Origin: a virus
DNA: 26,962 bases
Direction: 5' to 3' (one strand)
Virus record (IMG/VR): IMGVR_UViG_3300032116_001113
Location: 1 to 26,962 of that record
Positions within the stretch are counted from its first letter, which is position 1; every line of letters starts with the position of its first letter. Shown here one piece after another: positions 7,180-21,789 of this stretch. Made by a program: the position numbers and the translations under genes. The notes beneath the pieces were generated by a model, which had not been told where the DNA came from, searched no databases, and saw only the letters and a list, made by a program, of their open reading frames with translations.

Positions 7180-9402
7180 TTATGCCATAAGTGCCAAAGC
7201 ACGCATACTGTTTATTGTTGGAATATAGTAGGAATCTACACTGGTCATCACAATCTTCACTGCAAACACATGGAATTGAGTGAAGGTTGAACCGTTAGCC
7301 ACATATTCAAACACACCTGAACTATTCAATCCACCCACCACAGTGCCTTCATCATGACCATTTTTGTCAAACTTATATACCAATTCACCTGCTCCTAGAC
7401 TGTTGCTGGCTGCACTTTTAATCATTTGTGTCCAAGGACGATTCTTAGGTTCCGTGGTATCACCTACACCTAGAAGTTTTCCATACACAATTACATCAGT
7501 ACCAGCTGGAATATCGGCATCCAAGAACACCATTAAATCATCTGCTTCAGCGCCTGTTGGAAGTGAGACGAAACGTGTGTGATATTTTGCATTTCCCTTC
7601 ACATCAGCTGCTTCATAATCTACTGTGATGATGTCATCAGTTCCAGAAACAGCAGCATTAGCTGTCAATGTGATACTATCACGGGCTGTGACTGCACGCA
7701 CTACACCTATAACTTTGCCTTCAGAGTTACGAAGCACAGCGCCTGGAATTACTTGGTCAATAAAGGCGGTTTCATCGCCAGAAGTTTTACCTGTGACAGT
7801 TGTACTACCAGTGCTAAATGTTGATGTACCAGACAATGTTCTTCTAGTGCTACGAATCACATTTTCATAACCTACAATTTGTGACTTCGTGATGTCAACA
7901 ACAGGTGAAATGTTGGAGTTGCTGGTTGAGAAATTCACTTTCACCATCACAGAACCTTCTGTGGGGTCAGTGATGTTCAATCCTCCAGCCAATGTTTCAT
8001 ATGAATGTGAGTACACAGTTTTTTCTTCACCCAATGTAAAGACACCTTCTTTCTTCATGGGTGTATATGATACTGGATCCACTTCAGATGAATTGTAGAT
8101 TTTATGTTCAAATGATACAGCTGAATCATTGTACTCAATGTATGAGATGCCAGGTGCCAAACGATGTAGAAGTTTTCCTTCTACATTATCTTCATATGGT
8201 TCCAATGAAATGATGGCAGTACCCGAGCTTGATGCCGTTGATGTTCTCTTGATTGTTACAGTTTCACCATCACTAAATGTTCCAGAAACAATTTCCACAT
8301 GAGCCACTTTGTTGTAGCGGTCAAAGTTTAAAACAGTTCCTATTGCACTGCTAGTTACACCAGTAAGAGTATCTCCTACTAATACTTCAGTTGAGTTGGA
8401 AGAAATACCAAGATAATCAATCTTCTTGTTCTTTAAAATCAATGTTCCACTTGATACATTGAAGTTGGCACGATACACGGTGAACTTCATATCTGCTGAT
8501 TCTGATACGGTCCAATTCACGCTGTTGCTTGAAATGTACAACCGACCAGCAGCGGGTTGTTTGTCAATTTTTTCTTCTGTACCAATTTTGTTTTGTCCAA
8601 GAACTGCTGTCCAAATTTCATATCCTTCACGACCACCTGCTGGCAATAGAACTACGGCATATTCTTCATTGTTCTTCAAATACACAGGAGATTCAAATGT
8701 AAATTGTGTTGGTGCCTCAGCATCAGAGGACACATTCACATCTTTAGGATATAATGTTACTGTACTAAAGGGAAGAATTTCTGTTCCAGGATTTCCATTG
8801 GTTGTGGTTCGAATTTGTAATGTAATGGGTACATTGGCCACAGAAGGCTTTGTCTTGAAGAACACATCAATCTTGGTGATGAAGATACCGTTGTTTTGCC
8901 CAGACACGAAGAAGGTTTGAGCAACTGGATCTTTGAATGATGTTGTAGATGGATTTACTGTTACTGTACGTTCTACAGATAATTCTCTAGGTGATGTTGA
9001 CCGTGCAAATGTGATGTTAGGTGCACGTGTGGATCCTATTTTTCCTGTATCATAAGTGATGGCACCCTTAGATGTATAGGATGTTATAGCCACGCAATCG
9101 GTTTGAGCAGTAGGATCTGAAGGATGATTAATCAATGTGAACAGACGAGTTCCTGTCTTAAATGTTTCAGCAGGAATACGAAATACACCAGATATTTCAC
9201 CGTTGTTATCAGTTACAAGATTTCCTCCAAATACTGTGGCATCAATGTCACGACAATGGTCGGTAACAAGTTGTCCGTCAAAGAAAGGATACACCCGAGT
9301 GTTGGGCTTCAATCCTTTGGCATTGAAGTTCACTGTGGCACTACGCATATAGCTTAGTGGTTCATCAGCAGGTGCTTGTAAATTTGGTGGATTAATGGAC
9401 AT
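7180..9402 (-). CDS. Large beta-rich virion/baseplate-periphery protein (740 aa)
   Basis: The start SYMRSATVNFNAKGLKPNTR (about residues 17-36), followed by VYPFFDGQLVTDHCR, matches the opening of a structural protein family I recall downstream of baseplate genes in T4-like cyanophages. There it is annotated only as virion structural protein or gp10-like. About residues 145-315 look like a jelly-roll/carbohydrate-binding-like beta-sandwich: DPVAQTFFVSGQNNGIFITK, then LYPKDVNVSSDAEAPTQFTF and NNEEYAVVLLPAGGREGYEI. Later parts hold small beta modules such as STGSTTVTGKTSGDE and GAVLRNSEGKVIGVVRAVTA. No enzyme signature, signal peptide or membrane segment. AGGA lies about 7 bases before the ATG, and the preceding gene ends 12 bases upstream. 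A wedge or fibre-attachment role is inferred from position. Confidence 0.75.
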   Translation of the reverse strand: MSINPPNLQAPADEPLSYMRSATVNFNAKGLKPNTRVYPFFDGQLVTDHCRDIDATVFGGNLVTDNNGEISGVFRIPAETFKTGTRLFTLINHPSDPTAQTDCVAITSYTSKGAITYDTGKIGSTRAPNITFARSTSPRELSVERTVTVNPSTTSFKDPVAQTFFVSGQNNGIFITKIDVFFKTKPSVANVPITLQIRTTTNGNPGTEILPFSTVTLYPKDVNVSSDAEAPTQFTFESPVYLKNNEEYAVVLLPAGGREGYEIWTAVLGQNKIGTEEKIDKQPAAGRLYISSNSVNWTVSESADMKFTVYRANFNVSSGTLILKNKKIDYLGISSNSTEVLVGDTLTGVTSSAIGTVLNFDRYNKVAHVEIVSGTFSDGETVTIKRTSTASSSGTAIISLEPYEDNVEGKLLHRLAPGISYIEYNDSAVSFEHKIYNSSEVDPVSYTPMKKEGVFTLGEEKTVYSHSYETLAGGLNITDPTEGSVMVKVNFSTSNSNISPVVDITKSQIVGYENVIRSTRRTLSGTSTFSTGSTTVTGKTSGDETAFIDQVIPGAVLRNSEGKVIGVVRAVTARDSITLTANAAVSGTDDIITVDYEAADVKGNAKYHTRFVSLPTGAEADDLMVFLDADIPAGTDVIVYGKLLGVGDTTEPKNRPWTQMIKSAASNSLGAGELVYKFDKNGHDEGTVVGGLNSSGVFEYVANGSTFTQFHVFAVKIVMTSVDSYYIPTINSMRALALMA

Positions 9403-9414
9403 AATAATTCCTAA

Positions 9415-12400
9415 TTAAATTGCGTTAACGTCTTGGAAACCAAATGACGAGATTGGTTCTATTTCACCACCCTTCCATGTCATGCCGCCACCACCGTATA
9501 TTGAAGCCGGGTCACGTCCAGTTGCACCGCCGCCGCCTCCTCCATACACAGGTGGTGTTTCTTCAGGTGGTGCTGGAGAATCCAATGGCAAGAACACTGG
9601 GAATCCTTCATCAATGATGGTGGGTGTCACTGAGATGATGGCTGGTACTCCTAGAGCGCCACCCACACTATCAATCTTGATGGGCTTCAAGTTCCAATTT
9701 TGTTCCACGAATACAGGAACCACAGGTTTTTCTTTCTTGACTGGAGGTGGCGGAGGTGGTGGAGGAGCTACTTGTTCTACGATAACTGGCATTGGAATAG
9801 AAACTTCAACAATTTTTTCAACTTCACGAATCACTTCTACTTGTTTTTCAACTTCCTTGATGATGACTTCAGTGTTGTAGTGATTGATGATTTGTGGTTG
9901 TGTTCTGTGTTCATACCAGATATCTTCAGCAGGAATTAAACCAATGCTACCTTCATATCCATACACAACATTGTTAGTTACGGATACTGATTCAGAAGCA
10001 TAAGGATTTTCTGTGAATACCACGTGTTCATAAGGTAATGTTGCAATTTCACCATCAGCAGGATAATTCACCAAGTCTGGTCGGAAATCAGCAGCAAGAA
10101 TGGCTGTTGTGATGCCTGTGTATGTGATTAATCCTGTGGTGCTAGTTGTAGTACCGGTTACTGTGTAGGCTGTGTTGGCTACGAAAGTACCTGTGCAATT
10201 CACAAGATATAAACGAACCCACTTGTAATTTCCACCACGTGCAATTTCTACACGATGTTCAACTTCACCGGTTGCACCTGAAGTGGCCTGGCTTACAGTT
10301 TCACCAATACCGAAATTGGTGGCACCTACAGTTTGACGAACAACAATCTTGGCGTCTGTTGGAGCTAACAATACACTGCTGGTGCTAGACACTTCTAAAT
10401 CAATTGGGTCGGCATCTAGGCGAGGGGAAAGCACACCTTGATAAATTAAACAATCATTGGTTTCATTGTTCAAGTTGATTTTTTCAGCTCTATCAAATGA
10501 ATCTACTAGAACACCATTCTTGAATCTTTCTTCACCTGTATCATTATATATCAAGGCATTGATGGTCTTTTGTTCTAGGAAAGAAAGTTTTGTGAATTCT
10601 TCCAATGAACCCAAACGTTTTTCAATGACACCAATATCTGCCATGGTGTAACGGCGTTGTAAATCTGCTTTGCTAAAGCTAGATGCATTCACAGGACGTC
10701 CAGCCAATTTTGCCGCCTTTGGAGAAAGAGCAGGGAATGGAGGAAGTTGTAACACACCTAGGTCCATGCAATTGCTTGGCAACTTAGGTGTTAATGGATT
10801 TTCAGATGCCAATCCTTGAACCACAGTGAAGTTGCCATCTGCGTCCAACACCACTCTGTCCACACGGGGAAGATTCCACTCAATATCAGTGATGAATTCT
10901 TCTTGTGGGTGGGGGATATAGAACGGTGTAAATCCTGTGTATGCCTTGGTGGATGCTGTATATCCTATAGGATTGATGTTGGAAGATGTCAATGTGGTTG
11001 TGGATGTTGCCACGTTGGCTACAGTGACACGGAAATCCACACAATCACGCATTTCATATTTCTTACCATTTGATGCCATGTATACAGGCATCTTGTGCCA
11101 ATCTATTTGTGTAGATGTTGGACTACTGCCTTGTGCAGGCAATGGATATGAATTCACATTGAAAAAGGCACCAGCGTTATGAACAAAATGGTCTACTCGA
11201 ACAACATATCTACGTTCTTCTAGGAAGCCTCCATCAATGGTTCCTAGATTGTAGTGACTGTCTGTTTGTCCATTTTTAATTTTAAATTGTCCGGTGTAAT
11301 CATCGCCTGAAGTGTTGATAGTGGCCCAACTTGTTTCCACATCACCGGCCTTCACATAATCCACAGCGTAAATGTCGTATAATCCAAGTGAAGCGGATGT
11401 TGTGAATCTCTTGGCTACTACATCCCAATTAGGATGAACAACACGCAATGGTGTGGAGCTAGTTGTGGTGATATTTGCAGCTGAATTGCCAGTTAACACC
11501 ACAATAGGTCCAGTAGATGTTCCATCATTTCTTGCTGTTACAGAAGAAACAGTACCAAGCAACACATTGGCGCTAGTGTAAATTTTACTACCAGCTGGAC
11601 AGTCTTCAGATGTAATGGCTACAGAAGCATTATATGAGAAAGCAATATTTGCACTTCCCGTAGATGCTGTTGCTGTTAAGTAGGTACCAGAACTTACATA
11701 TCCCAACTTCTTGGTTGTTTGAATACGAACATAACGGTCGGTGTTCAATGTTTTTGTACGAGGGGTAACATCAGACCGAGAAACAGAAGCCAACACAGAC
11801 ACAGTAGGACTTCCAGTTAAACTACCTGGAGTATAGATGTTGAAGTTAATGGTGTTGGTGCCCGGTGTAACAGTTGCATTAGCACCAACCATGTTGATAA
11901 CTTGTCCAGCTGTGTAAATGGTGCTGCCTGTACTAATGGTAGTTTCAGCAATGACAATGAATTCTGTTAGAATTGTTGCATTAGTTGATGTGGTGAATGC
12001 AAAATTTTCATCACCTGACACGCTAACAGAAGCAGAACCGTTAGCTGCCACTGCTACAGAAGTGAAATGTTTTCTGTAGACAAATGAGTTGTCTAACGTG
12101 TTAGGTTGTAATGTTTTAACGTAATCGTAGGTGGTGGGAATAATGTAAGGTGAAAATGAACTTTCTTTCAATACAGCAGGTGTATCAGCTACGTCTGCAT
12201 GAAAATCTTTTGAAGCGTTGTCAAAATAGATGCCTTGAATATCACTTACACTACCCCCTGTCATTTCAATATCATAAAGATATACACGATAACGAGCAGA
12301 AGCAGCACCAGATGTTCCTGAAATATATTCTACAGTGGCAATACGAGCAGTACCTATTTGTGAACCAGGAGCTGATGTTGATGAATAAGTACCTGCTGTT

Positions 12401-13623
12401 ACTGCTCCTGCTGCGGCGCCACGTAATGATACCAATGAACCATTAGAAGGAATGTTGCCGCACATTTCATCTACAATCAAATAATTTCCATATGCAGTAG
12501 ATAAACGAATAGCGGTTCTTTCATTGGTGTCTGTAGGCTTTACGACATCAAGATATTTTGTGGCAAACAATTCATATTCAAATCCACGAACATATGCCTT
12601 TCCTGGTTCTACACCAAGAGCGAGTTTTCCATTGTCGCCACCTTGCACTGTTGTATAAACACCATCTGTGTCATCATCTACCAAGTGTTCACGAATATGA
12701 TAGTTGAATGGACGTACAACATAATCACCTGATTCATCATAGGTTCTACGTGCCAAAGTTTTATTTAATTCAGCGTATTGTGTTCTATCATATCTACGAC
12801 TGATAGCACCAGCACTTACTTCGTAGAGTACAAAGAATCCTTCCACCGTTTCATTGATAGGATAAGCTACAAGTGTTGTAGATAATTTAAAACGGTCAGC
12901 ACCTGGAGCTGTATAGTTGAAGGCACCTTGTGCAGGGTCCAATAATGTTTCATCATCATCAGATGTGATGACTTCTTCAGATACTAGAAATCCTACTTTT
13001 TTGCTTGGCGTATCACTGTATTTTTCTAGTACAATGGTTTGTGTGTAGTGACGAATGAAGTAACCGTTGGCATACACCACACCGTCACCTACAGAAAATA
13101 AAGAACCTTTTGTGACTGGTGTTTGTGATGCATCTGCAATAATCACTGTTACGTTTTCATCATCATCTTGTGTCAATACTTCATCAGCAACAAATGTTTC
13201 AGTGGTTCCTGAATCACCTTGTGAAATGTATTGTAGAAACACTGCTTTAAATGTGGTTGTTTCACTACCAGTAGCAACTTTCTTCACAACAGCTTTCACA
13301 TTGTCGTTGGCACCTACTAGAATTTTTCCTTCCAATGCTAGTAAAGCCGCATCAGTGATTTCTTGACCAGCTGTATCTGTATCTAAAATTTTAATAACAT
13401 CAACACCAAAATTTGTGGATTCTGGGCAACCAGAAATAACAGAACCTTCCTTGAAGATGTTATCGCCAAATCGTTTAATTTGGTCTTGAAGGATGGTTTG
13501 TAATTGTGTTAGTTCACGAGCTTGTACAGCAAAACCAGGCTTGAACAAAACTCTGTGAAAGTTTTTGTCCAAATCAAAATCATCATAATATGGATAGGTG
13601 TTGAGATTTAGCTTAGTGGCCAT
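9415..13623 (-). CDS. DUF4815-type giant virion structural protein (1402 aa)
   Basis: The N-terminus YPYYDDFDLDKNFHRVLFKP, then GFAVQARELTQLQTILQDQI and FGDNIFKEGSVI (to about residue 70), is the hallmark of DUF4815 proteins, large virion proteins of T4-like phages. A long beta-rich body follows with Thr/Ser/Ala-rich stretches and local repeats. Near residues 1060-1085 there is a conserved-looking helical part (LQRRYTMADIGVIEKRLGSL). The C-terminus is unusual: a charged VEKQVEVIREVEKIVEV segment (about 1255-1275), a run of eight prolines near 1288, then Gly-rich loops (six Gly near 1362) before the end at FQDVNAI. No Shine-Dalgarno is seen; the start is 6 bases after the gp8 stop, suggesting translational coupling. 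Probably a baseplate-periphery protein linking wedges and fibres (inferred). Confidence 0.8.
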   Translation of the reverse strand: MATKLNLNTYPYYDDFDLDKNFHRVLFKPGFAVQARELTQLQTILQDQIKRFGDNIFKEGSVISGCPESTNFGVDVIKILDTDTAGQEITDAALLALEGKILVGANDNVKAVVKKVATGSETTTFKAVFLQYISQGDSGTTETFVADEVLTQDDDENVTVIIADASQTPVTKGSLFSVGDGVVYANGYFIRHYTQTIVLEKYSDTPSKKVGFLVSEEVITSDDDETLLDPAQGAFNYTAPGADRFKLSTTLVAYPINETVEGFFVLYEVSAGAISRRYDRTQYAELNKTLARRTYDESGDYVVRPFNYHIREHLVDDDTDGVYTTVQGGDNGKLALGVEPGKAYVRGFEYELFATKYLDVVKPTDTNERTAIRLSTAYGNYLIVDEMCGNIPSNGSLVSLRGAAAGAVTAGTYSSTSAPGSQIGTARIATVEYISGTSGAASARYRVYLYDIEMTGGSVSDIQGIYFDNASKDFHADVADTPAVLKESSFSPYIIPTTYDYVKTLQPNTLDNSFVYRKHFTSVAVAANGSASVSVSGDENFAFTTSTNATILTEFIVIAETTISTGSTIYTAGQVINMVGANATVTPGTNTINFNIYTPGSLTGSPTVSVLASVSRSDVTPRTKTLNTDRYVRIQTTKKLGYVSSGTYLTATASTGSANIAFSYNASVAITSEDCPAGSKIYTSANVLLGTVSSVTARNDGTSTGPIVVLTGNSAANITTTSSTPLRVVHPNWDVVAKRFTTSASLGLYDIYAVDYVKAGDVETSWATINTSGDDYTGQFKIKNGQTDSHYNLGTIDGGFLEERRYVVRVDHFVHNAGAFFNVNSYPLPAQGSSPTSTQIDWHKMPVYMASNGKKYEMRDCVDFRVTVANVATSTTTLTSSNINPIGYTASTKAYTGFTPFYIPHPQEEFITDIEWNLPRVDRVVLDADGNFTVVQGLASENPLTPKLPSNCMDLGVLQLPPFPALSPKAAKLAGRPVNASSFSKADLQRRYTMADIGVIEKRLGSLEEFTKLSFLEQKTINALIYNDTGEERFKNGVLVDSFDRAEKINLNNETNDCLIYQGVLSPRLDADPIDLEVSSTSSVLLAPTDAKIVVRQTVGATNFGIGETVSQATSGATGEVEHRVEIARGGNYKWVRLYLVNCTGTFVANTAYTVTGTTTSTTGLITYTGITTAILAADFRPDLVNYPADGEIATLPYEHVVFTENPYASESVSVTNNVVYGYEGSIGLIPAEDIWYEHRTQPQIINHYNTEVIIKEVEKQVEVIREVEKIVEVSIPMPVIVEQVAPPPPPPPPVKKEKPVVPVFVEQNWNLKPIKIDSVGGALGVPAIISVTPTIIDEGFPVFLPLDSPAPPEETPPVYGGGGGGATGRDPASIYGGGGMTWKGGEIEPISSFGFQDVNAI
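9739..9880 (-). repeat. Low-complexity Pro tract and Val/Glu repeat in the DUF4815 protein
   Basis: The plus strand 'ggaggtggcggaggtggtgg' encodes eight consecutive prolines. The adjacent codons encode an alternating Glu-Val/Lys segment (VEKQVEVIREVEKIVEV). A second low-complexity block near 9525-9545 encodes six glycines. Confidence 0.75.
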
Positions 13624-13629
13624 GTGTTA

Positions 13630-16290
13630 TTAGAAGTTGATATACAATTTAAATGTTTCAGTTTGTTCAAGTTGTCGAACAAGAGGAGCGATGTTGTTAT
13701 AGTAAATAACTTCACCTGTTCTTTGAGAAATTTCTGGCTGTGTCAACGATGTGATGGTAAGACCAGATGTACCTGTAGTGGTGTTTTCTAATACTGATTC
13801 TTCTGTGATATTATTTATCACAGGTAGCAGATAGATAACGCTATCAGATTCATTGACATAGGCAACCAAATATTTTCCATTACTGTCAGTTGTTACAATA
13901 TCATCAAGATTGTATTGTGATGCATCTGGGACAGTTAAAACAAAACATCCGTTACCTGTGTTGGCAGAGAACAATGTTTCATTGTCGAACGTTTTAATAT
14001 TCTTGATTATTCCATATTGACGAAAATCATTTTCCAAAAAGAAATCTTCTTGGAAATCTTCAATGTTTACTGCGATACCTAGTGTTGTAGCAAACAATTC
14101 TTGTGGAATATTGGAACCATGGCCACCTTGTGGAGAAATGACAGCTCGAAGTTCTCCGTTTGTTCCATCTCCATTAATTGTCAAATCAGCAAACGTGTAC
14201 CCAGTGCCTCGGTCAGTAATAGTGACAGCAGTGATTTCACCATCTACAACTGTAAGTTCAGCAGCAGCACCTTCACCATCTCCATTAATGTTCACAGTGG
14301 TTGTGGCGTTCACATATCCAGTGCCCCCATCTACAATTTCAATGAAATCAATTTGTCCGTTAGTGGCAACGGCATACCCTGCCACGTTTTGATTGATGAT
14401 GTTGGGAAGGTCTGTTGTTTCAATGGTGACAGAACCTGAGGCACCTGTTCCTCCTCCCCCAAGAATCAATACGAAAGCAAAACTATATCCAGAACCGCCG
14501 TTGGTTAAATTCAATTCAGTAACTAAACCACTACCAACTACAGCAGATGCTTCAGCTCCTACACCATCACCCACAATGATGACAGATGGTGTCGTTGTGT
14601 AACCTGATCCTTGGTCTTCCAAAATGATTTCACTAATGGTACCGTTATGGTCAAATCGTGTAGATGTACCATAGAACTTCACAGGAACATAATCAGCAGT
14701 TAAAAATTTCACACGGTCAGCAGCTGGTACTTCGTACAACAATTGCCAGATGTATCCATCTGATAGCGTCTTGGGACCAACTTCTGAGAAACTTGGTTTC
14801 ACAGTGGATGGATTTCCATTATTGTTACTTAAACACTTATATACTCGGAAATTGTCGGAATTGAATACATAGAAATCTAAATCAGACATATCTATTGTAT
14901 CATCATATTGGTCATACACGGTAGCTGTTGTCCAATCAATTCTTCTAGCCAACAATGTGACATCACTTGGATTAACTTTCTTTACACCTAAAATGTTCCG
15001 TTTAATGGAAGAATCATCTGAACGTGCATCTACAGGAGTTGGCGGTGTGGGTTCATTGGCCCATTCCGTTGGTCGTGATAGAAACACATAGAAATAATCA
15101 TGAGGATTTGGATAATTTGTTAATGTAAAGGTGTTGATGGTGACTGTTTGATCCAATGGACCTGTTAGAATCATGTCACCGATGTCAAATGAGGGCTTGA
15201 TGTTGATGGCTGTTCCTGCTTGAGCGTTAGCCAATGTTGTAGCTAGCTTAATGGTGTTGTTGGTCACCTTGATGATGAAATAGTTTGTGGCATCAGTTAA
15301 TGTGGAGATACTTCCTCCATCTTCAGTAAAGATAACTTCTTGACCGGTCACAAATCCGTGTGAGGCAAGATAGAAGGTGTTGTCAATACGCAAAAATGCT
15401 TGATTACTATTTCCTGTTCCAGTAAAATTGATTGCCGATCCGCCGGATGTCAATGACAATTTAAATGTATCTGTTGTGGCATTCACAACATAGTATTCAC
15501 TGTTGTTGGTTAACCCTCCAAGGGTGGTACCACCATTGGAATAATAGGTAACAATTTCACCATTAGATAATCCATGATTCAATGATGTGATGGTTTCAGT
15601 ACCAGTATCAACACCTGTGGTAGGTACTGTGATGCCATGTAAATTCACCAGTTGTGTATCTACAGCTGCACCGTCAATATATTCTTCCATCAATACCAAC
15701 TGAAATGCTGACCCTGATGGAGACCCATCTAGGTTAATGGCAGTAGGAGATGATGCAATGGCATAGGCTCTACTAGTAGCCAACTTAATGGTATCTTCAT
15801 CAATGAAAATCACATAGTAGGATACAGCATTCACCATGTTGGTAATGCCAGTTGTAGCACCATTTTCAAAATATAACACTTGGTCACCTTCATTGAATCC
15901 ATGGTCAACATAAGTGATGGTGTCTTGACTGGTGTTGATTGCTGTATCAGCAAATTCAATACCACGAATGGTCAATGTTGTAACTTCTTCACCAATGGGA
16001 GTTAGAAATTCAATGCTAGTTCCATTGGTGGCAATGTAATCGTCTGTTAAGATTTTATCACCATCAATGTATACTTCCACTCTGCCTGGGGTGTATGCCA
16101 AAGTTTTACCCTTGACATCTTCCCCAGAGAAAGTGGTGTCACCAGCTGTTGCCGAATAGGTGTACATTGTAGTATCTAGTGTGTTCAGAGTGTTCAACTC
16201 TCCACTAGGAACATTCAATGTATTTACAATATCTCGGTGAAAACTGCGTGCTAGTTCCGTCCGGAACCTAATCGGCAATAAAGCTGGCAT
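13630..16290 (-). CDS. gp8: Baseplate wedge subunit gp8, enlarged by inserted modules (886 aa)
   Basis: Both ends and the middle line up with recalled T4 gp8 (334 aa). RFRTELARSFHRDIV near the start matches T4 KFRTEKMLNFYNSI. YFYVFLSRPTEW (about 399-410), ILGVKKVNPSDV and RRIDWTTATVYD (about 433-460) match the gp8 core. SDGYIWQLLYEVPAADRVKF (about 510-529) matches T4 DGYVWEYLFEIP. The C-terminus TGEVIYYNNIAPLVRQLEQT matches T4 SGEMIYMENRPPIIMAMDQT. Two large insertions account for the extra length: about residues 42-385 (a VYIDGDKI-type small domain and three HGF/HGL repeats) and about 560-725 (GSGY-type repeats). gp8 dimers bridge gp6, gp7 and gp10 in T4 wedges. No Shine-Dalgarno is visible; the previous stop is 10 bases upstream. 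Confidence 0.88.
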   Translation of the reverse strand: MPALLPIRFRTELARSFHRDIVNTLNVPSGELNTLNTLDTTMYTYSATAGDTTFSGEDVKGKTLAYTPGRVEVYIDGDKILTDDYIATNGTSIEFLTPIGEEVTTLTIRGIEFADTAINTSQDTITYVDHGFNEGDQVLYFENGATTGITNMVNAVSYYVIFIDEDTIKLATSRAYAIASSPTAINLDGSPSGSAFQLVLMEEYIDGAAVDTQLVNLHGITVPTTGVDTGTETITSLNHGLSNGEIVTYYSNGGTTLGGLTNNSEYYVVNATTDTFKLSLTSGGSAINFTGTGNSNQAFLRIDNTFYLASHGFVTGQEVIFTEDGGSISTLTDATNYFIIKVTNNTIKLATTLANAQAGTAINIKPSFDIGDMILTGPLDQTVTINTFTLTNYPNPHDYFYVFLSRPTEWANEPTPPTPVDARSDDSSIKRNILGVKKVNPSDVTLLARRIDWTTATVYDQYDDTIDMSDLDFYVFNSDNFRVYKCLSNNNGNPSTVKPSFSEVGPKTLSDGYIWQLLYEVPAADRVKFLTADYVPVKFYGTSTRFDHNGTISEIILEDQGSGYTTTPSVIIVGDGVGAEASAVVGSGLVTELNLTNGGSGYSFAFVLILGGGGTGASGSVTIETTDLPNIINQNVAGYAVATNGQIDFIEIVDGGTGYVNATTTVNINGDGEGAAAELTVVDGEITAVTITDRGTGYTFADLTINGDGTNGELRAVISPQGGHGSNIPQELFATTLGIAVNIEDFQEDFFLENDFRQYGIIKNIKTFDNETLFSANTGNGCFVLTVPDASQYNLDDIVTTDSNGKYLVAYVNESDSVIYLLPVINNITEESVLENTTTGTSGLTITSLTQPEISQRTGEVIYYNNIAPLVRQLEQTETFKLYINF
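13812..13819 (-). promoter_or_regulatory. Weak internal late-promoter-like octamer (GATAAATA)
   Basis: GATAAATA, one mismatch from TATAAATA, lies within the 3' part of gp8, about 190 bases before the start of the 1402-residue gene. It may be chance. Confidence 0.25.
14115..14613 (-). repeat. GxGY beta repeats inserted in gp8
   Basis: About residues 560-725 hold four units with GSGYTTTPSVIIVGDGVGA, NGGSGYSFAFVLILGGGGTG, VDGGTGYVNATTTVNINGDG and TDRGTGYTFADLTINGDGT. Two related units occur in the 1026-residue protein at about 18590-18850. Confidence 0.85.
15195..15930 (-). repeat. Three HGF/HGL beta-domain repeats inserted in gp8
   Basis: Residues about 121-200, 229-300 and 303-365 share the pattern 'xHG[FL]xxGxxVxYxxxGGxxxxLTxxxxYYVIxxTxxTIKLATT' (for example VDHGFNEGDQVLYFENGATT and LNHGLSNGEIVTYYSNGGTT). 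The units are strongly diverged in DNA but clearly homologous in protein. Confidence 0.85.
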
Positions 16291-16300
16291 TAGTTTTTAA

Positions 16301-16759
16301 TTATGAAAGTGTGACAGTCCAAGTAATGGTCATAGCGTCAGATGCACCCTTGTTCACTACTGAGAACACAGTGCGGCACAACATGGTACCTGATGATGAA
16401 GCATTGAAGATACCTGCTTCTACAAGAGCGCCAGTACCTGTGCCTGCAGGGAATGTGCAAACATATTGTACTGAGTCGTTGCTGCTTGATGATGTGGTTT
16501 GTGTTGAAGATGTCAAACCTGTACGTGAACCTGATACAGCAGCAATAAGTGCAGTTTGTCCAGCTGATGCTGAAGTATTGTCAGTACCCACTTCCATGTG
16601 TGACATTACGCCTGATGATGTGCCAATCATACGTGATGTGATGTAGGCCTTACCTACAGTAACTACAAGATTGTCGATGTTACGTTCTTCTTTCACGACA
16701 CCATTTTCATCGTGAACAACAATCTTAACCTTACCGGTTGCTTTGATTAATTCTTCCAT
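16301..16759 (-). CDS. Small conserved virion protein (152 aa)
   Basis: The product starts MEELIKATGKVKIVVHDENG. It contains RNIDNLVVTVGKAYITSRMI, SGVMSHMEVGTDNTSASAGQ, GTGTGALVEAGIFNASSSGT and MLCRTVFSVVNKGASDAMTI, ending TWTVTLS. This block order matches, from memory, a small structural protein common in T4-like cyanophages and pelagiphages and in some prophages, usually annotated as tail-fibre or virion protein. It is all-beta in appearance, with no enzyme motif. Expression signals are the best in the window: exact TATAAATA at 16809-16816 and AGAGGA about 6 bases before the ATG. This suggests many copies per virion or strong demand. It lies between the repeat-tailed protein and gp8. Confidence 0.78.
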   Translation of the reverse strand: MEELIKATGKVKIVVHDENGVVKEERNIDNLVVTVGKAYITSRMIGTSSGVMSHMEVGTDNTSASAGQTALIAAVSGSRTGLTSSTQTTSSSSNDSVQYVCTFPAGTGTGALVEAGIFNASSSGTMLCRTVFSVVNKGASDAMTITWTVTLS

Positions 16760-16822: not shown

Positions 16823-19800
16823 TTATAAACTATATCCAGTTCCAACATAATCTCCTGCCACATACGGTGATGCAGAGAATCTACCGTTCACGAAATAACT
16901 ATCTACCCAGATGGTTCCACCCGCATCCGTTACAGTTTGTGAGTCAGAAACATTCTTTTGTGGTTCTAGAACATTGGCGTCAGAGACAGTTACCGTGTCT
17001 GTTGGAATTAGGTAATCAATGTCAAATGCTGTTGCGTCTGACAATGTGATTTCTTCCACTAAATCACTGCTTGCGTCATTAAGTTGTGTGAAATCTGTTG
17101 CTATATCATCAACAAGTGTGAACGTATCTGAGAGTCCAAGTGTAATTTCTTTCACAAATGTTTCAGAAGTACTTATACTATCAGTTGCAGTATTGTTTAC
17201 ACTTAATGATACCACATCTACAAGTGGAAGATTTTCAGACAATTCACTGGTGTCATCATGTGTTTGTAGGAATTCAATTTCTGTAACAGTATTTAATGAA
17301 AGTTGTTCTGAGAATGAGAAATCCTTATCTTTTGTAACTGTTTCTGTGATGTTAACACTATCAGACAATTCCACTGGAATTACAATCAACACATCTAAAC
17401 TATCTGAAGATGAAACACTATCTGACAAAGCAATTGTGGTTTCTACTGATAAGTTGTCAATGAAATTTTGTGAATCAGATAATGTGTATTCAATGTTTTT
17501 TGTAAGAACATCGGTTGTAATAATACTATCAGATTTTTCAAGTTCTGTGTTTATTGTATTTACATTATCAGTAATGGATTGTGTATCAGTAAACACATAT
17601 TCAGTATTTAATGCAATGTTATCTACGACACCCACATCTTCTTGTAAATCTGATGTTGCGTCATTTTGTTGATTGAAGTTTACATTGGTAGTATCAGACA
17701 ATGTAATAGTATCTGTGAATACCATGTCAGTCACAAATGTTGTAACGTGTGATGTTGAAACTGAATCAACGTATGCGTTTTCTGTTTCTAGTACTGTATC
17801 ATCTGTTGTCGTGAATGTGTCAGATAAAGATTTTTCTACAGCAAATGATGTGACATCAACTGTAGACACATCTTCTTGTAAATCAGATGTTACGTCATTT
17901 TGTTGGTCAAAATCTTGGAACAAACTATCAGTGATGGTTAAACTATCGGTAAGTGCTATGGTTACACCAAGAATTGCTTCATCCGTTACCGTGGTGCTAT
18001 CACTTAATGGTTTTTCCACATCTTGTGCTAACACATCACCTGTTGTCACAACATCAGTTGCACCAAGACTTGTATCCATTGTCAACACATCTGTTGTGGA
18101 TACGGTGTCTGAAGGAGTTTCAAGATATACAATAGCTACTTGTGCTACATCAGATACAGATACCGTGTCTGTGGTTACGGGGCGACTGATGGCTTTGGCC
18201 ACCACTTCTGATACTGTAACTGTTTCTTCCAATTCACGATATGGCAAATCTTCAATGTCCACTTGATTGAAATCATCATCCACTGTGATTTCTTCTGGTG
18301 TAAGGTTACCAGTCAACAACAAATTGGAGAACATCTTGAAGCCCGCAGGATGTGAGCTCTTTAAATATGTGCTCTTCCAGTTGGATAATTGTTCTGTGGT
18401 TTCAATGACATAAGAATATGGTTGATAATAATCATTGTCTTGAAGTGTGATGATGTCTGACAAGAAGCCGGCATTATCAACATATTCACCAGGTGCATGA
18501 TAGATGTGACCTGTGGCAAACGTGATGGCGGCAGTTGAAGAACCTGAACGACCATTATTGAAGTCCACGGAGAAGGTTTTCACAGGAGTATATCCGGTGG
18601 AAATGTTCACTTCAAACACAGCTCCAGTACCTGAACCCGAGGCGGTCAGCGTTGTTAAAGGAAGTCCTGTGGAGGGATTGATTTCTGTGCTGTAGTTGGA
18701 ACCACCGTTCACCACAGTGACTTGTGTGATTTTACCACCAGACACTAACACACGGAATTCAGCACCTGAACCGTCACCCACAAGATTCACAGCTGTGGCA
18801 CCCACGGCATATCCAGAACCACCGTCCAAGATGGTGACAGATTCAATCACACCTGTCTTACGAACCAAGAACTTCTCACCGCTATCCACGATGGACAACA
18901 ACTTAATTTTACCACGGGTAGGAGCAGATGCATAATCACCGAACAGTGTGTAATCTTCAAGGAAGTATTGTTCAGCAAATGTGTTTTCTGTTTTAACTAC
19001 ACGAACAATGGCGTTGTTTTGCAGTAGTTCATAGGCGTAAGCAGCAGACCCAGCGGTAACTTCTGTATAGTCACCAGCAAAATATAACCCTTCTAGACCT
19101 GTTTCTGAAACGAAGTAGGTATCGTCACGACGGAATCTACTACCTGGTTCATCAACACTTAAAACAGAAGTTAACTGCTTAGAGATGGTACCATACGTAA
19201 TGGTTTCATCTCCAACATATTGTACATAAACGTGAGTGTCGTAGAAACCTAAACTTGGTGCTAATGTAAGGTCAGCAGAAATGTCATCTGGAAATTGATA
19301 GTTGGGATTGATGTCAACTTGCAATTGATAGATGTTGGGACGTGATGTTTCATAGACATCAAGGCATCGTGTAGTAACTGTTCGTGCAAAATTACCAGCA
19401 CCTTCAATGTATTCCAAATAATATAACGTGATGACTTTTTCTTTCAGTTCGTAGATGTTTTCATTTGGAAATAAAGTAGTATCTACCTTGATGAAACGTT
19501 TTCTACTCCAACGACCATCTGAAGCACGAAGAAGATAATCACCTGGATATTTTACTGTGGCTGTATCATTGAACATGAAACGGAAAAACATTTCCGTGGA
19601 TGTTTCTGAACCTTTGGCTTCATAGTATTGATTGATGTATTTTATCAAACGACGGTTATCAAGAACCGTATCGCTTGGCATATCATAAGTGTATTGATTT
19701 CTGAAATATGGAATAAACACATCCAATGTTTCATCAATGTCCATCCAATCCATGTTATTGAGCAATACATCATGAACTTCACCTTGATTTTCTAGAAACT

Positions 19801-19903
19801 TATAATAGTGTTCTAGGAAGGTGACAAACTGCGGGTATTCAACCCGAACAAATTCAGGAATTTGTCCTGAAATTAAATGATGCAGCTTTCTCTTAATCGA
19901 CAT
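16823..19903 (-). CDS. Large baseplate-associated protein with Ser/Thr/Asp repeat tail (1026 aa)
   Basis: The N-terminal 140 residues (LISGQIPEFVRVEYPQFVTF, LEHYYKFLENQGE, YYEAKGSETSTEMFFRFMFN) resemble the opening of large virion proteins encoded next to gp6 in T4-like aquatic phages. By position this is the gp7 slot, but homology to gp7 cannot be shown here. About residues 351-438 hold two GSGY-type beta units. About 440-528 contain LQDNDYYQPYSYVIETTEQL and HPAGFKMFSN, conserved in similar phage proteins. From about residue 558 to 990 the sequence is a run of about 20-residue repeats of the type 'LSDSxTxTDxxxxxxxxxxx', very rich in Ser, Thr, Asp and Val. A short aromatic/Gly C-terminus follows (FVNGRFSASPYVAGDYVGTG). 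The start overlaps the gp6 stop by one base (TAATG). Confidence 0.78.
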   Translation of the reverse strand: MSIKRKLHHLISGQIPEFVRVEYPQFVTFLEHYYKFLENQGEVHDVLLNNMDWMDIDETLDVFIPYFRNQYTYDMPSDTVLDNRRLIKYINQYYEAKGSETSTEMFFRFMFNDTATVKYPGDYLLRASDGRWSRKRFIKVDTTLFPNENIYELKEKVITLYYLEYIEGAGNFARTVTTRCLDVYETSRPNIYQLQVDINPNYQFPDDISADLTLAPSLGFYDTHVYVQYVGDETITYGTISKQLTSVLSVDEPGSRFRRDDTYFVSETGLEGLYFAGDYTEVTAGSAAYAYELLQNNAIVRVVKTENTFAEQYFLEDYTLFGDYASAPTRGKIKLLSIVDSGEKFLVRKTGVIESVTILDGGSGYAVGATAVNLVGDGSGAEFRVLVSGGKITQVTVVNGGSNYSTEINPSTGLPLTTLTASGSGTGAVFEVNISTGYTPVKTFSVDFNNGRSGSSTAAITFATGHIYHAPGEYVDNAGFLSDIITLQDNDYYQPYSYVIETTEQLSNWKSTYLKSSHPAGFKMFSNLLLTGNLTPEEITVDDDFNQVDIEDLPYRELEETVTVSEVVAKAISRPVTTDTVSVSDVAQVAIVYLETPSDTVSTTDVLTMDTSLGATDVVTTGDVLAQDVEKPLSDSTTVTDEAILGVTIALTDSLTITDSLFQDFDQQNDVTSDLQEDVSTVDVTSFAVEKSLSDTFTTTDDTVLETENAYVDSVSTSHVTTFVTDMVFTDTITLSDTTNVNFNQQNDATSDLQEDVGVVDNIALNTEYVFTDTQSITDNVNTINTELEKSDSIITTDVLTKNIEYTLSDSQNFIDNLSVETTIALSDSVSSSDSLDVLIVIPVELSDSVNITETVTKDKDFSFSEQLSLNTVTEIEFLQTHDDTSELSENLPLVDVVSLSVNNTATDSISTSETFVKEITLGLSDTFTLVDDIATDFTQLNDASSDLVEEITLSDATAFDIDYLIPTDTVTVSDANVLEPQKNVSDSQTVTDAGGTIWVDSYFVNGRFSASPYVAGDYVGTGYSL
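16935..18230 (-). repeat. Degenerate tandem repeat encoding the SDSxTxTD tail
   Basis: About 22 units of roughly 19-20 codons encode motifs such as LSDSTTVTDEAIL, LTDSLTITDSL, LSDTFTTTDDT and LSDSVSSSDSL. Four places carry a second, longer motif: DFDQQNDVTSDLQEDV, NFNQQNDATSDLQEDV, EFLQTHDDTSELSENL and DFTQLNDASSDLVEEI. These lie near 17880-17925, 17635-17680, 17230-17280 and 17055-17095. Confidence 0.85.
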
Positions 19904-21789
19904 TATACTTCAGTGAATGGACGGCAAGAAATTGTTAATCCAGCAGAAATGTTAGCTACTGAATTGCTTTGACTATCATCTAATGTTAAAATACTGTTTC
20001 GTGATGGAAGTGCTGCCACGGCAAACGCAGAGGTATCTGATGTTCTTACTACTGCACTTGAAATGTTTTGATATAATGGTTGAGGACGAACTGACAAATA
20101 TAATTCATTGATGTTACCAAGATACCCAGATACAATGACATTTTGTAGTGTTACCAATCCCGCATTGTAATGTACTGTTCCAACTGTGGCTATTGGTAAT
20201 CTAGTTTGTGCTTCAATGAATTTAATGGTGCCATATCCATCATCATTGGCAACAGCATCATCACTGAAATCTTGTAGATATCCTTGATATGTCAATCCAT
20301 TAATGTTAGTTACAAAGTTACTGCTTCGAAATGTTTCAGGATCTATGGCAGTTAAGAAATTCAACTCTTTGGAATATCCTGATGTTGTGCTAATACCCAC
20401 AGGAATTCTTTTTTGTAATCGAAGTTTAAACACAGAACTTACAATAGATGTGTTAGTGTTTTTCACTGTTTCTGTCAATTTAGATAAGAAAAATGTTTTA
20501 TCTAATGTTCCCAATTCCGTGTCAAAATAGTTTTCTATTTCATTTGTCACAAGAACTGATAAATCTGAAGGCTTTAAACTAGTCAACTTAGAATTGTAAT
20601 TCACAATGCCTTCAATACCAAGATAAACATATTCTGGATCCACAAATTCATGTTTAATACTCATTACACTACGCGGACGTAGAATAGATTCTTTAATGAA
20701 ATCTTTGTCTGCATCAGTTAACACAGCATTGGTTACTGGGTCAATGGAGATGAACACGGATCCATATACAGGAGGATCATTTTCTTCTCCGCCCCACACA
20801 GTAACTTCTCTGGCTTTTGTGAAATTTTGCTTGATGAGTGTTCTGTAATCTTCTGCTGTGACTGCTCGATTTCTGTTAGCATTGAATTTAGGTGCATTGA
20901 AACGAATGCTATCAATGCTTTCTCTTGATGCTCCACCAGCTGAGGGTTGAATAATAGTGATGTCTACTTGGTCTTCACCATCAATATCACCAACTAAAGT
21001 GAATACTCGTGCGCCGTTGGCATTGGAACCTTCAGACACAAGATAAGTGATGGTGACAATGTTGCCAGCTATCAATTTAGCGCCAACATTATCATCACCA
21101 AATATCACTTGATATTGACCTGCATTGTTTTCTTCCACCCAAAACACTTTGCTAGTGCTAGTTACATCTACAATGCTAGAGGTTTTCACCCAATCAACAC
21201 TTGTTAAATTAGAGGTGGATGTTTGAACAGAAACTTCTACTGTTGAAGTATCTACGTTACCGTTAGGTATAATGAGCGGTCCAGATAAATTATCTGCACC
21301 AATTAAAAAACTATTAGATAGATATACACCCTCAATCAATTCCACATCAGTAAACACAAACTTGTTTTCATTGTTTACTGTGGCAGTTTGAGATTCATTA
21401 ACATTGAATGTATAAGATGTTCCGTTTATTGCAGCATTAAACTTCACAGCGGGTGTAATAGACAATGTGTTACCTACAGTAACATCTTTTGTTACTGACA
21501 AATCTACACGTGCTTTAGCAGATGTTGTGGAACGTGGGCTATATCCTAACATTTTTGCCAAAGAAACCACAGATGTTCTTTTAATGGCAGTGTCAATGAA
21601 CATTTCATTGGCTTGTAAATTGGCAAGAACTGCATTGTAATGTGTGTTATATGATAACACATCTAAAAGCAAATTCAATGCTGAACCAGTGAAATCATAA
21701 TCTGTGAATTCAGGCTGAGCAGCTAGATAGGTTCGTAAATTATTTTTAATGGTATCAAAATCTAATTCTGTGACGTTAAGTTCTGCCAT
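19903..21789 (-). CDS. gp6: Baseplate wedge subunit gp6 (baseplate J-like, 628 aa)
   Basis: The length is close to T4 gp6 (about 660 aa). The N-terminus ELDFDTIKNNLRTYLAAQPE, then FTDYDFTGSALNLLLDVLSY and NTHYNAVLANLQANEMFIDT, is the characteristic gp6 / baseplate J-like opening. SVVSLAKMLGYSPRSTTSAK follows and is also conserved. About residues 280-320 contain GGASRESIDSIRFNAPKF and RAVTAEDYRTLIKQNF, the hallmark of the family. In T4, gp6 dimers form the inner ring of wedges around the hub and pair with gp25 and gp53, which are encoded nearby here. Start and stop both overlap neighbours by one base (TAATG). Only a weak GAGAG sequence precedes the start. The C-terminus (LTISCRPFTEV) is complete. 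Confidence 0.93.
   Translation of the reverse strand: MAELNVTELDFDTIKNNLRTYLAAQPEFTDYDFTGSALNLLLDVLSYNTHYNAVLANLQANEMFIDTAIKRTSVVSLAKMLGYSPRSTTSAKARVDLSVTKDVTVGNTLSITPAVKFNAAINGTSYTFNVNESQTATVNNENKFVFTDVELIEGVYLSNSFLIGADNLSGPLIIPNGNVDTSTVEVSVQTSTSNLTSVDWVKTSSIVDVTSTSKVFWVEENNAGQYQVIFGDDNVGAKLIAGNIVTITYLVSEGSNANGARVFTLVGDIDGEDQVDITIIQPSAGGASRESIDSIRFNAPKFNANRNRAVTAEDYRTLIKQNFTKAREVTVWGGEENDPPVYGSVFISIDPVTNAVLTDADKDFIKESILRPRSVMSIKHEFVDPEYVYLGIEGIVNYNSKLTSLKPSDLSVLVTNEIENYFDTELGTLDKTFFLSKLTETVKNTNTSIVSSVFKLRLQKRIPVGISTTSGYSKELNFLTAIDPETFRSSNFVTNINGLTYQGYLQDFSDDAVANDDGYGTIKFIEAQTRLPIATVGTVHYNAGLVTLQNVIVSGYLGNINELYLSVRPQPLYQNISSAVVRTSDTSAFAVAALPSRNSILTLDDSQSNSVANISAGLTISCRPFTEV

What the first reader, a model, noticed from the sequence alone, without database searches (positions are those of the whole stretch)
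16935..18230. 430-residue Ser/Thr/Asp repeat tail on a baseplate-adjacent protein
The sequence shows about 22 degenerate units of about 19-20 residues with a core like LSDSxTxTD, fused to a conserved phage N-terminal domain next to gp6. The composition is strongly acidic with little Lys or Arg. This suggests an extended beta-fibrous or metal-binding rod rather than a globular wedge protein. It could be a fibre-like arm on the baseplate or a surface-binding element.
Basis: partly seen in the sequence, partly recalled or inferred. Interest (0 to 1): 0.72.

Follow-up and report, generated by a model that had tools for sequence, protein, structure and literature searches.

The report
Repeat arm on phage baseplate wedge
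A phage baseplate protein (the counterpart of T4 gp7) ends in about 23 copies of an 18-residue repeat plus a conserved tip; the same repeat, usually with the tip, sits beside the same small fibre-type gene in many unrelated phages, so it looks like a swappable, length-adjustable arm for host attachment, although its shape is still unknown.

Summary
Residues 558-1002 of the 1026-aa ORF 16823-19903(-) carry 22 clear units and one degenerate unit. The true period is 18 residues (some units are 24), consensus [LF][ST]D[ST][VI][TS]x[ST]D..., far above shuffles. The N-terminal 545 residues match the C-terminal third of T4 gp7, and the gene sits in the gp7 slot (gp25-gp6-HERE-small ORF-gp8). Homologues carry 0 to about 39 units; one clade (L052/L053/L163) has none. 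New here: the tail ends in a conserved cap (SYF...YVG, elsewhere YFAEDYVG), and the next gene, orf152 (16301-16759), belongs to a family related to Pfam Gp80 (podophage GP4 fibre I). In 51 of 52 clusters of orf152-family loci from IMG/VR, the gene just upstream carries the same 18-residue repeat; 45 of 52 carry the YFAEDYVG-type cap (controls 2/228 and 3/228). The anchors differ: gp7-like wedges, siphophage tail proteins, prophage tail genes. Best reading: a transferable adsorption cassette, in which a variable-length arm on a baseplate or tail-tip protein presents a cap that docks the small fibre protein. AlphaFold2 gave no confident fold (pLDDT 34 and 54), so rod, solenoid or flexible tether is undecided, and metal binding is unsupported.

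The parts
16823..19903 (-). gp7-like baseplate wedge protein with C-terminal repeat arm, 1026 aa
   Evidence: ORF; PF23786 Baseplate_wedge E 8e-16; phrog_17744 baseplate wedge subunit; gene slot gp25-gp6-HERE-gp8
18269..19903 (-). conserved N-terminal domain, aa 1-545, equivalent to the C-terminal third of T4 gp7 (about 643-905)
   Evidence: hhalign to T4 gp7 643-786 E 5e-4 (though HH-suite probability only 31%); profile vs PDB: top hit gp7 9f4a, E 0.014, two collinear blocks
18596..18859 (-). GGSGY-type domain inserted in the N-domain, aa 349-436, absent in L022/L047/L053 and with a paralogous copy in gp8
   Evidence: alignments; self-hit to gp8
16898..18232 (-). repeat arm, aa 558-1002: 22 units of 18 (some 24) residues plus one degenerate unit
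   Evidence: unit scan against shuffles, autocorrelation
16826..16897 (-). C-terminal cap, aa 1003-1026 (YFVNGRFSASPYVAGDYVGTGYSL; family consensus YFAEDYVGxSRTF)
   Evidence: alignments; cap in 45 of 52 cassette clusters against 3 of 228 control ORFs
16301..16759 (-). orf152, small fibre-type protein (phrog_5417; family matches Pfam PF23140 Gp80 fibre I), partner gene of the repeat arm
13630..16290 (-). gp8-like wedge protein; aa about 94-378 (15157-16011) is an insertion absent from the tailless relatives
   Evidence: PF09215, phrog_438, comparison with L052-54
19903..21789 (-). gp6 baseplate wedge subunit, partner of the N-domain in the wedge
   Evidence: PF21379, phrog_219 E 1e-155

Best explanation
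The protein is the gp7-type wedge subunit of a T4-like baseplate. Its N-terminal domain packs with gp6 in the wedge (inferred from homology and gene order). Its C-terminus has been extended by a variable-length arm of 18-residue repeats that ends in a conserved cap. The arm holds the cap away from the baseplate and the cap docks the product of the next gene (orf152, a small GP4-fibre-I-like protein), which is itself, or carries, a receptor-binding fibre (inferred). Arm, cap and small gene form a cassette that occurs on unrelated tail and baseplate anchors (shown by gene linkage), and arm length changes by gain and loss of units (shown by comparison). That the arm is a stiff rod is not shown.
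For: N-domain = gp7 C-terminal third in the gp7 slot. Every tailed close relative has orf152 directly downstream; tailless L052-54 lack orf152 and also the gp8 insertion. Starting from orf152, not from gp7: in 51 of 52 clusters the gene directly upstream has the 18-residue repeat pattern and in 45 the cap, against 2 and 3 of 228 control ORFs (Fisher 2e-52 and 8e-41). Starting from the gp7 domain: 38 complete clusters give 16 with both, 16 with neither, 5 with orf152 only, 1 with repeat only (p 1.3e-5). Same linkage in cultured phages (BcepGomr gp17/gp18, Achromobacter ART and LB7, phage Simon) and in bacterial genomes (14 of 15 loci), including lambda-like regions ordered hub - orf152 - repeat ORF. 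Neighbours elsewhere are BppU_N, tail-fibre chaperone and tail spike. orf152 family hits Pfam Gp80 (6 of 10 members) and a solved baseplate hub. Precedent: XM1 gp17, the gp7 orthologue, binds spikes through regions including its C-terminus (PMC10457771). Amphipathic pattern: hydrophobics favour odd unit positions, Asp at 3 and 9.
Against: No structure: two AlphaFold2 models are of low confidence. No direct evidence that cap and orf152 bind; adjacency and correlated divergence (Mantel r 0.42) can also come from co-inheritance. On the gp7 tree the linkage has only 4-5 independent concordant pairs and 0 discordant ones (p 0.06-0.125). In BUCT-ZZ01 the repeat-bearing gp7 and orf152 lie apart, with orf152 next to gp8. 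A few orf152 neighbours have other C-termini. Several orf152 hits are weak (E 1e-4 to 1e-8).
Confidence: 0.55

Rival explanations
1. The repeat is a flexible, largely disordered acidic linker or brush without defined repeat geometry; only cap and orf152 matter for attachment.
For: AlphaFold2 gives no confident structure; low-complexity acidic composition; unit number varies from 0 to about 39; Hardies et al. report a similarly unpredictable region beside a GP4-fibril-like protein in LSH1 (PMC13243795).
Against: Asp3 and Asp9, Lys17 and hydrophobic odd positions are kept across 52 clusters and 709 units, mostly in an 18-residue phase; a mere linker would not be expected to keep phase.
Confidence: 0.25
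2. The arm is an oligomeric (for example trimeric) beta-fibre or solenoid shaft that itself carries receptor or polysaccharide contacts, and orf152 is an assembly chaperone for it, like gp38 or Tfa, rather than a structural partner.
For: A small gene directly downstream of a fibre shaft with conserved tip is the classic layout of fibre plus chaperone or adhesin (established knowledge of gp37/gp38 and Tfa); single-chain prediction would fail for an obligate oligomer.
Against: orf152 relatives resemble structural fibre and hub proteins (Gp80, PDB 9h4p), not chaperones; in one cassette group (L146) a separate tail-fibre assembly chaperone gene lies nearby; gp7 is one copy per wedge (established for T4), which does not favour a trimeric shaft.
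Confidence: 0.15
3. Chance or hitch-hiking: the repeat is a neutral expansion at a permissive C-terminus, and its link to orf152 reflects inheritance of one block.
For: A clade without the tail exists (L052-54, L163); phylogeny-corrected pairs are few.
Against: The same pair recurs on unrelated anchors and in either gene order.
Confidence: 0.05

Closest known systems
T4 gp7 (baseplate wedge)
   Same: N-domain homologous to gp7 residues about 643-905; same gene slot between gp6 and gp8
   Different: Lacks gp7's N-terminal domains; has a repeat arm and cap that T4 gp7 lacks
Vibrio phage XM1 gp17 (short gp7 orthologue, PMC10457771)
   Same: Compact wedge protein, one per wedge; its C-terminus and one loop are where tail spikes attach
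   Different: XM1 has only a short unresolved C-terminus, no 18-residue repeat, no orf152-type partner reported
Podophage GP4 fibre I gp80 (PF23140)
   Same: orf152 family members match this Pfam model; GP4 protein forms a fibril linking an adhesin to the nozzle collar (as described in PMC13243795)
   Different: orf152 of the window itself scores below threshold; in GP4 the anchor is a podophage nozzle; no repeat partner was checked there
Alishewanella phage LSH1 gp34-gp36 virion module (PMC13243795)
   Same: GP4-fibril-like small protein travelling with a large protein that has a badly predicted, possibly repetitive region; detected in virions by mass spectrometry
BcepGomr gp17 family (phrog_384, virion structural protein)
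   Same: C-terminus carries weak 18-19 residue repeats and the YxxxDYVG cap, followed by an orf152 homologue
   Different: Siphophage tail anchor, only a few units

Membership tests
T4 gp7 family (baseplate wedge) | Sequence similarity to gp7 | tested here: met
   hhalign E 5e-4 (HH-suite probability 31%) and PDB profile search with gp7 as top hit in two collinear blocks; PF23786 E 8e-16; weak individually, consistent together
T4 gp7 family (baseplate wedge) | Gene position between gp6 and gp8 | tested here: met
T4 gp7 family (baseplate wedge) | One copy per wedge in complex with two gp6 | not testable with these tools
   needs cryo-EM or biochemistry
GP4 fibre I (Pfam Gp80), for orf152 | Match to PF23140 | tested here: inconclusive
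   6 of 10 family members match, best E 6.6e-5; the window protein itself has no Pfam hit at E 0.1
GP4 fibre I (Pfam Gp80), for orf152 | Dimeric fibril structure | not tested
RTX-type or other calcium-binding beta-roll | Gly-rich GGxGxDxUx nonapeptides | tested here: not met
   arm has about 1% Gly and one LSDSxTxTD core per 18 residues
Known repeat families of Pfam | Pfam match to aa 558-1026 | tested here: not met
   no family at E 0.1 in the tail; no family at its curated cut-off in the arms of other cassette proteins
Trimeric beta-fibre shaft | Repeating beta geometry | tested here: inconclusive
   AlphaFold2 single chain pLDDT 34 and 54

The most novel reading that the evidence does not exclude
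A previously undescribed, widely shared adsorption module: a length-adjustable arm of 18-residue Asp/Ser/Thr repeats with a common YFAEDYVG docking tip and a dedicated small fibre partner, plugged onto contractile wedges, siphophage tail tips and prophage hubs alike, letting phages change fibre reach without changing the anchor or receptor part.
Probability: 0.45. Interest if true: 0.75.

Novelty: new variant of a known kind. Interest (0 to 1): 0.58.

Why it matters
Phage fibres are usually recognised by the tip or by known shaft families. It gives a sequence signature (18-residue repeat with Asp at 3 and 9, YFAEDYVG cap, orf152) to find candidate receptor-binding arms in uncultured phages. 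It says that a core wedge protein can carry the fibre attachment arm itself, and it makes a testable prediction about cap and orf152 binding.

Tried and rejected
Full-length and C-terminal AlphaFold2 models were too poor to use, so no fold search was made. tblastn of the tail alone against cultured phages found nothing (low-complexity filter is on). Phage A-1(L) gp80 (PMC10966104) only shares a name. Slicko01, a relative of part of the LSH1 module, was fetched over its first 99 kb; the scan shows no repeats or orf152 in it. LSH1 and GP4 records are not held. psbA was sought in six relatives' contigs to name a cyanobacterial host: none, so the host stays unknown. A Mantel test of cap against orf152 divergence is positive but cannot separate binding from co-inheritance. 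The long + strand ORFs opposite the repeat (17019-17672, 17673-18266) are taken as an artefact of Ser/Thr/Asp-rich codons. Literature searches for the motif strings found nothing.

Full report
OBSERVATION. The finding lies in the 1026-aa ORF 16823-19903 on the minus strand; 16935-18230 is aa 558-990. A position-specific profile of the repeat finds 22 units between aa 558 and 1002 plus a degenerate one at 864-887, 442 bits in all against 2.3 +/- 4.0 for shuffled tails, and none in the N-domain. The period is 18 residues; the six strongest autocorrelation lags are all multiples of six, and some units are 24 long with a conserved NFNQQNDATSDLQEDV stretch. The composition is acidic as described (86 D/E, 11 K/R of 435). 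The repeat is not repetitive at DNA level here, but is in the relative L092.

WHAT IT IS FUSED TO. The order on the minus strand is gp5, gp25, gp6, this gene, a 152-aa ORF (orf152), gp8, then large proteins. The first 545 residues match PF23786 Baseplate_wedge. A profile of them aligns with T4 gp7 643-786 (E 5e-4, probability 31%), and in the PDB its top hit is gp7 with two collinear blocks, 647-764 and 860-902 (E 0.014). Each is modest; with the gene slot (T4 order) they make this the gp7 counterpart, without gp7's N-terminal two thirds. The authors of DLP6 also call the orthologous gene gp7 (PMC5349666).

COMPARISON ACROSS HOMOLOGUES. Close relatives carry 20-24 strict units, others about 10-23 with the general profile, one 39, and the clade L052/L053/L163 none: there the protein is 442-453 aa and stops right after the conserved domain. 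In L052-54 gp8 follows directly, orf152 is missing, and gp8 lacks about 285 residues (aa 94-378) that tailed relatives have. The cultured cyanophage BUCT-ZZ01 has about 9 units in the same slot and an orf152 homologue next to gp8.

THE CASSETTE. orf152 homologues turned up in unrelated siphophages, and the protein encoded just upstream there (BcepGomr gp17, ART_126, LB7 WNO48986, phage Simon) ends in similar 18-19-residue repeats and a YFAEDYVG-like cap (read by eye, and BcepGomr by profile). After clustering to 52, 51 upstream proteins have the spaced D/E pattern of the repeat and 45 the cap, against 2 and 3 of 228 other ORFs in the same loci. A unit profile over these proteins gives 709 units, mode spacing 18, Asp at positions 3 and 9, Lys at 17 (the profile was trained on these proteins, shuffles give 0.8 units per protein), and hydrophobics preferring odd positions. 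The opposite test, sampling by the gp7 N-domain alone, gives 16 clusters with both, 16 with neither, 5 with orf152 only (most still capped), and 1 with repeat only; Fisher 1.3e-5. Some orf152 hits in that set are weak (E 1e-4 to 1e-8) and their neighbours have few units. Corrected for descent the gp7 set yields only 4-5 independent concordant pairs and no discordant ones, so within gp7 the correlation is suggestive; its recurrence on unrelated anchors carries the argument. In bacterial genomes 14 of 15 orf152 loci have the repeat next door; in Limnohabitans-type loci the order is tail-hub gene, orf152, repeat ORF with a different C-terminal domain.

FUNCTION. orf152's family matches PHROG tail-fibre models and Pfam Gp80, podophage GP4 fibre I (6 of 10 members, best E 6.6e-5), and a solved baseplate hub (E 2.6e-5). 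The GP4 protein is described as a fibril linking an adhesin to the nozzle collar (PMC13243795). Cassette neighbours elsewhere are BppU_N, tail-fibre chaperone and tail spike. In XM1 the gp7 orthologue's helix-turn-helix forms the core bundle, and its unresolved loop and C-terminus hold the tail spikes (PMC10457771). I therefore propose wedge, arm, cap, orf152, receptor. Shown: repeat, cap, anchor homology, linkage, length variation. Inferred: cap-orf152 binding, orf152 as fibre or adaptor, role in adsorption. Unknown: shape of the arm, oligomeric state, metal binding, host.

STRUCTURE. AlphaFold2 of the full protein with 13 sequences: pLDDT 33.6. The last 140 residues with 65 sequences: pLDDT 54, no secondary structure assigned. 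This neither supports nor excludes a rod; an obligate oligomer or a disordered chain would both give it.

NOVELTY. No Pfam family covers the repeat, PHROGs that match are mostly of unknown function, and motif searches of the open literature returned nothing; subscription papers were not searched. The nearest published case is the LSH1 module, whose authors found a region they could not explain; whether it is the same repeat is untested.

Noticed in passing
window 15157-16011 (-), gp8 aa about 94-378: gp8 carries an insertion with three HGxxxGD...GLTNxTxYYV-type repeats that is absent in tailless relatives L052-54, as if gained or lost together with the gp7 arm and orf152.
   Followed up: partly
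window 18596-18859 (-) and 14194-14652 (-): A GGSGY domain inserted in the gp7-like protein has paralogous copies in gp8 of the same phage (35-42% identity) and is missing from some relatives: domain shuffling between wedge proteins.
   Followed up: partly
window 7180-9402 and 9415-13623 (-): The large phrog_358 (VrlC-like) protein is split into two adjacent ORFs of 740 and 1402 aa.
   Followed up: no
L028:5001-8867 (DLP6 AMQ65900): The gp7-like protein of Stenotrophomonas phage DLP6 has an unrelated long Thr/Tyr/Asn/Arg repeat tail, so long repetitive C-termini arose more than once in this slot.
   Followed up: no
L242, L245-L252 (Comamonadaceae and related genomes): Lambda-like regions with order tail-hub gene, orf152 homologue, repeat ORF ending in a HPPGY...FRDFIQGDYTY domain: the repeat here lies downstream and bears a different tip.
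   Followed up: partly
L092:2446-3296: A gp7-like protein with near-identical FGKTLSDSITAPTDAAA units that are still tandem at DNA level, a good place to watch unit gain and loss.
   Followed up: partly
window 17019-17672 and 17673-18266 (+): Two long open frames opposite the repeat, probably an artefact of its codon composition.
   Followed up: no
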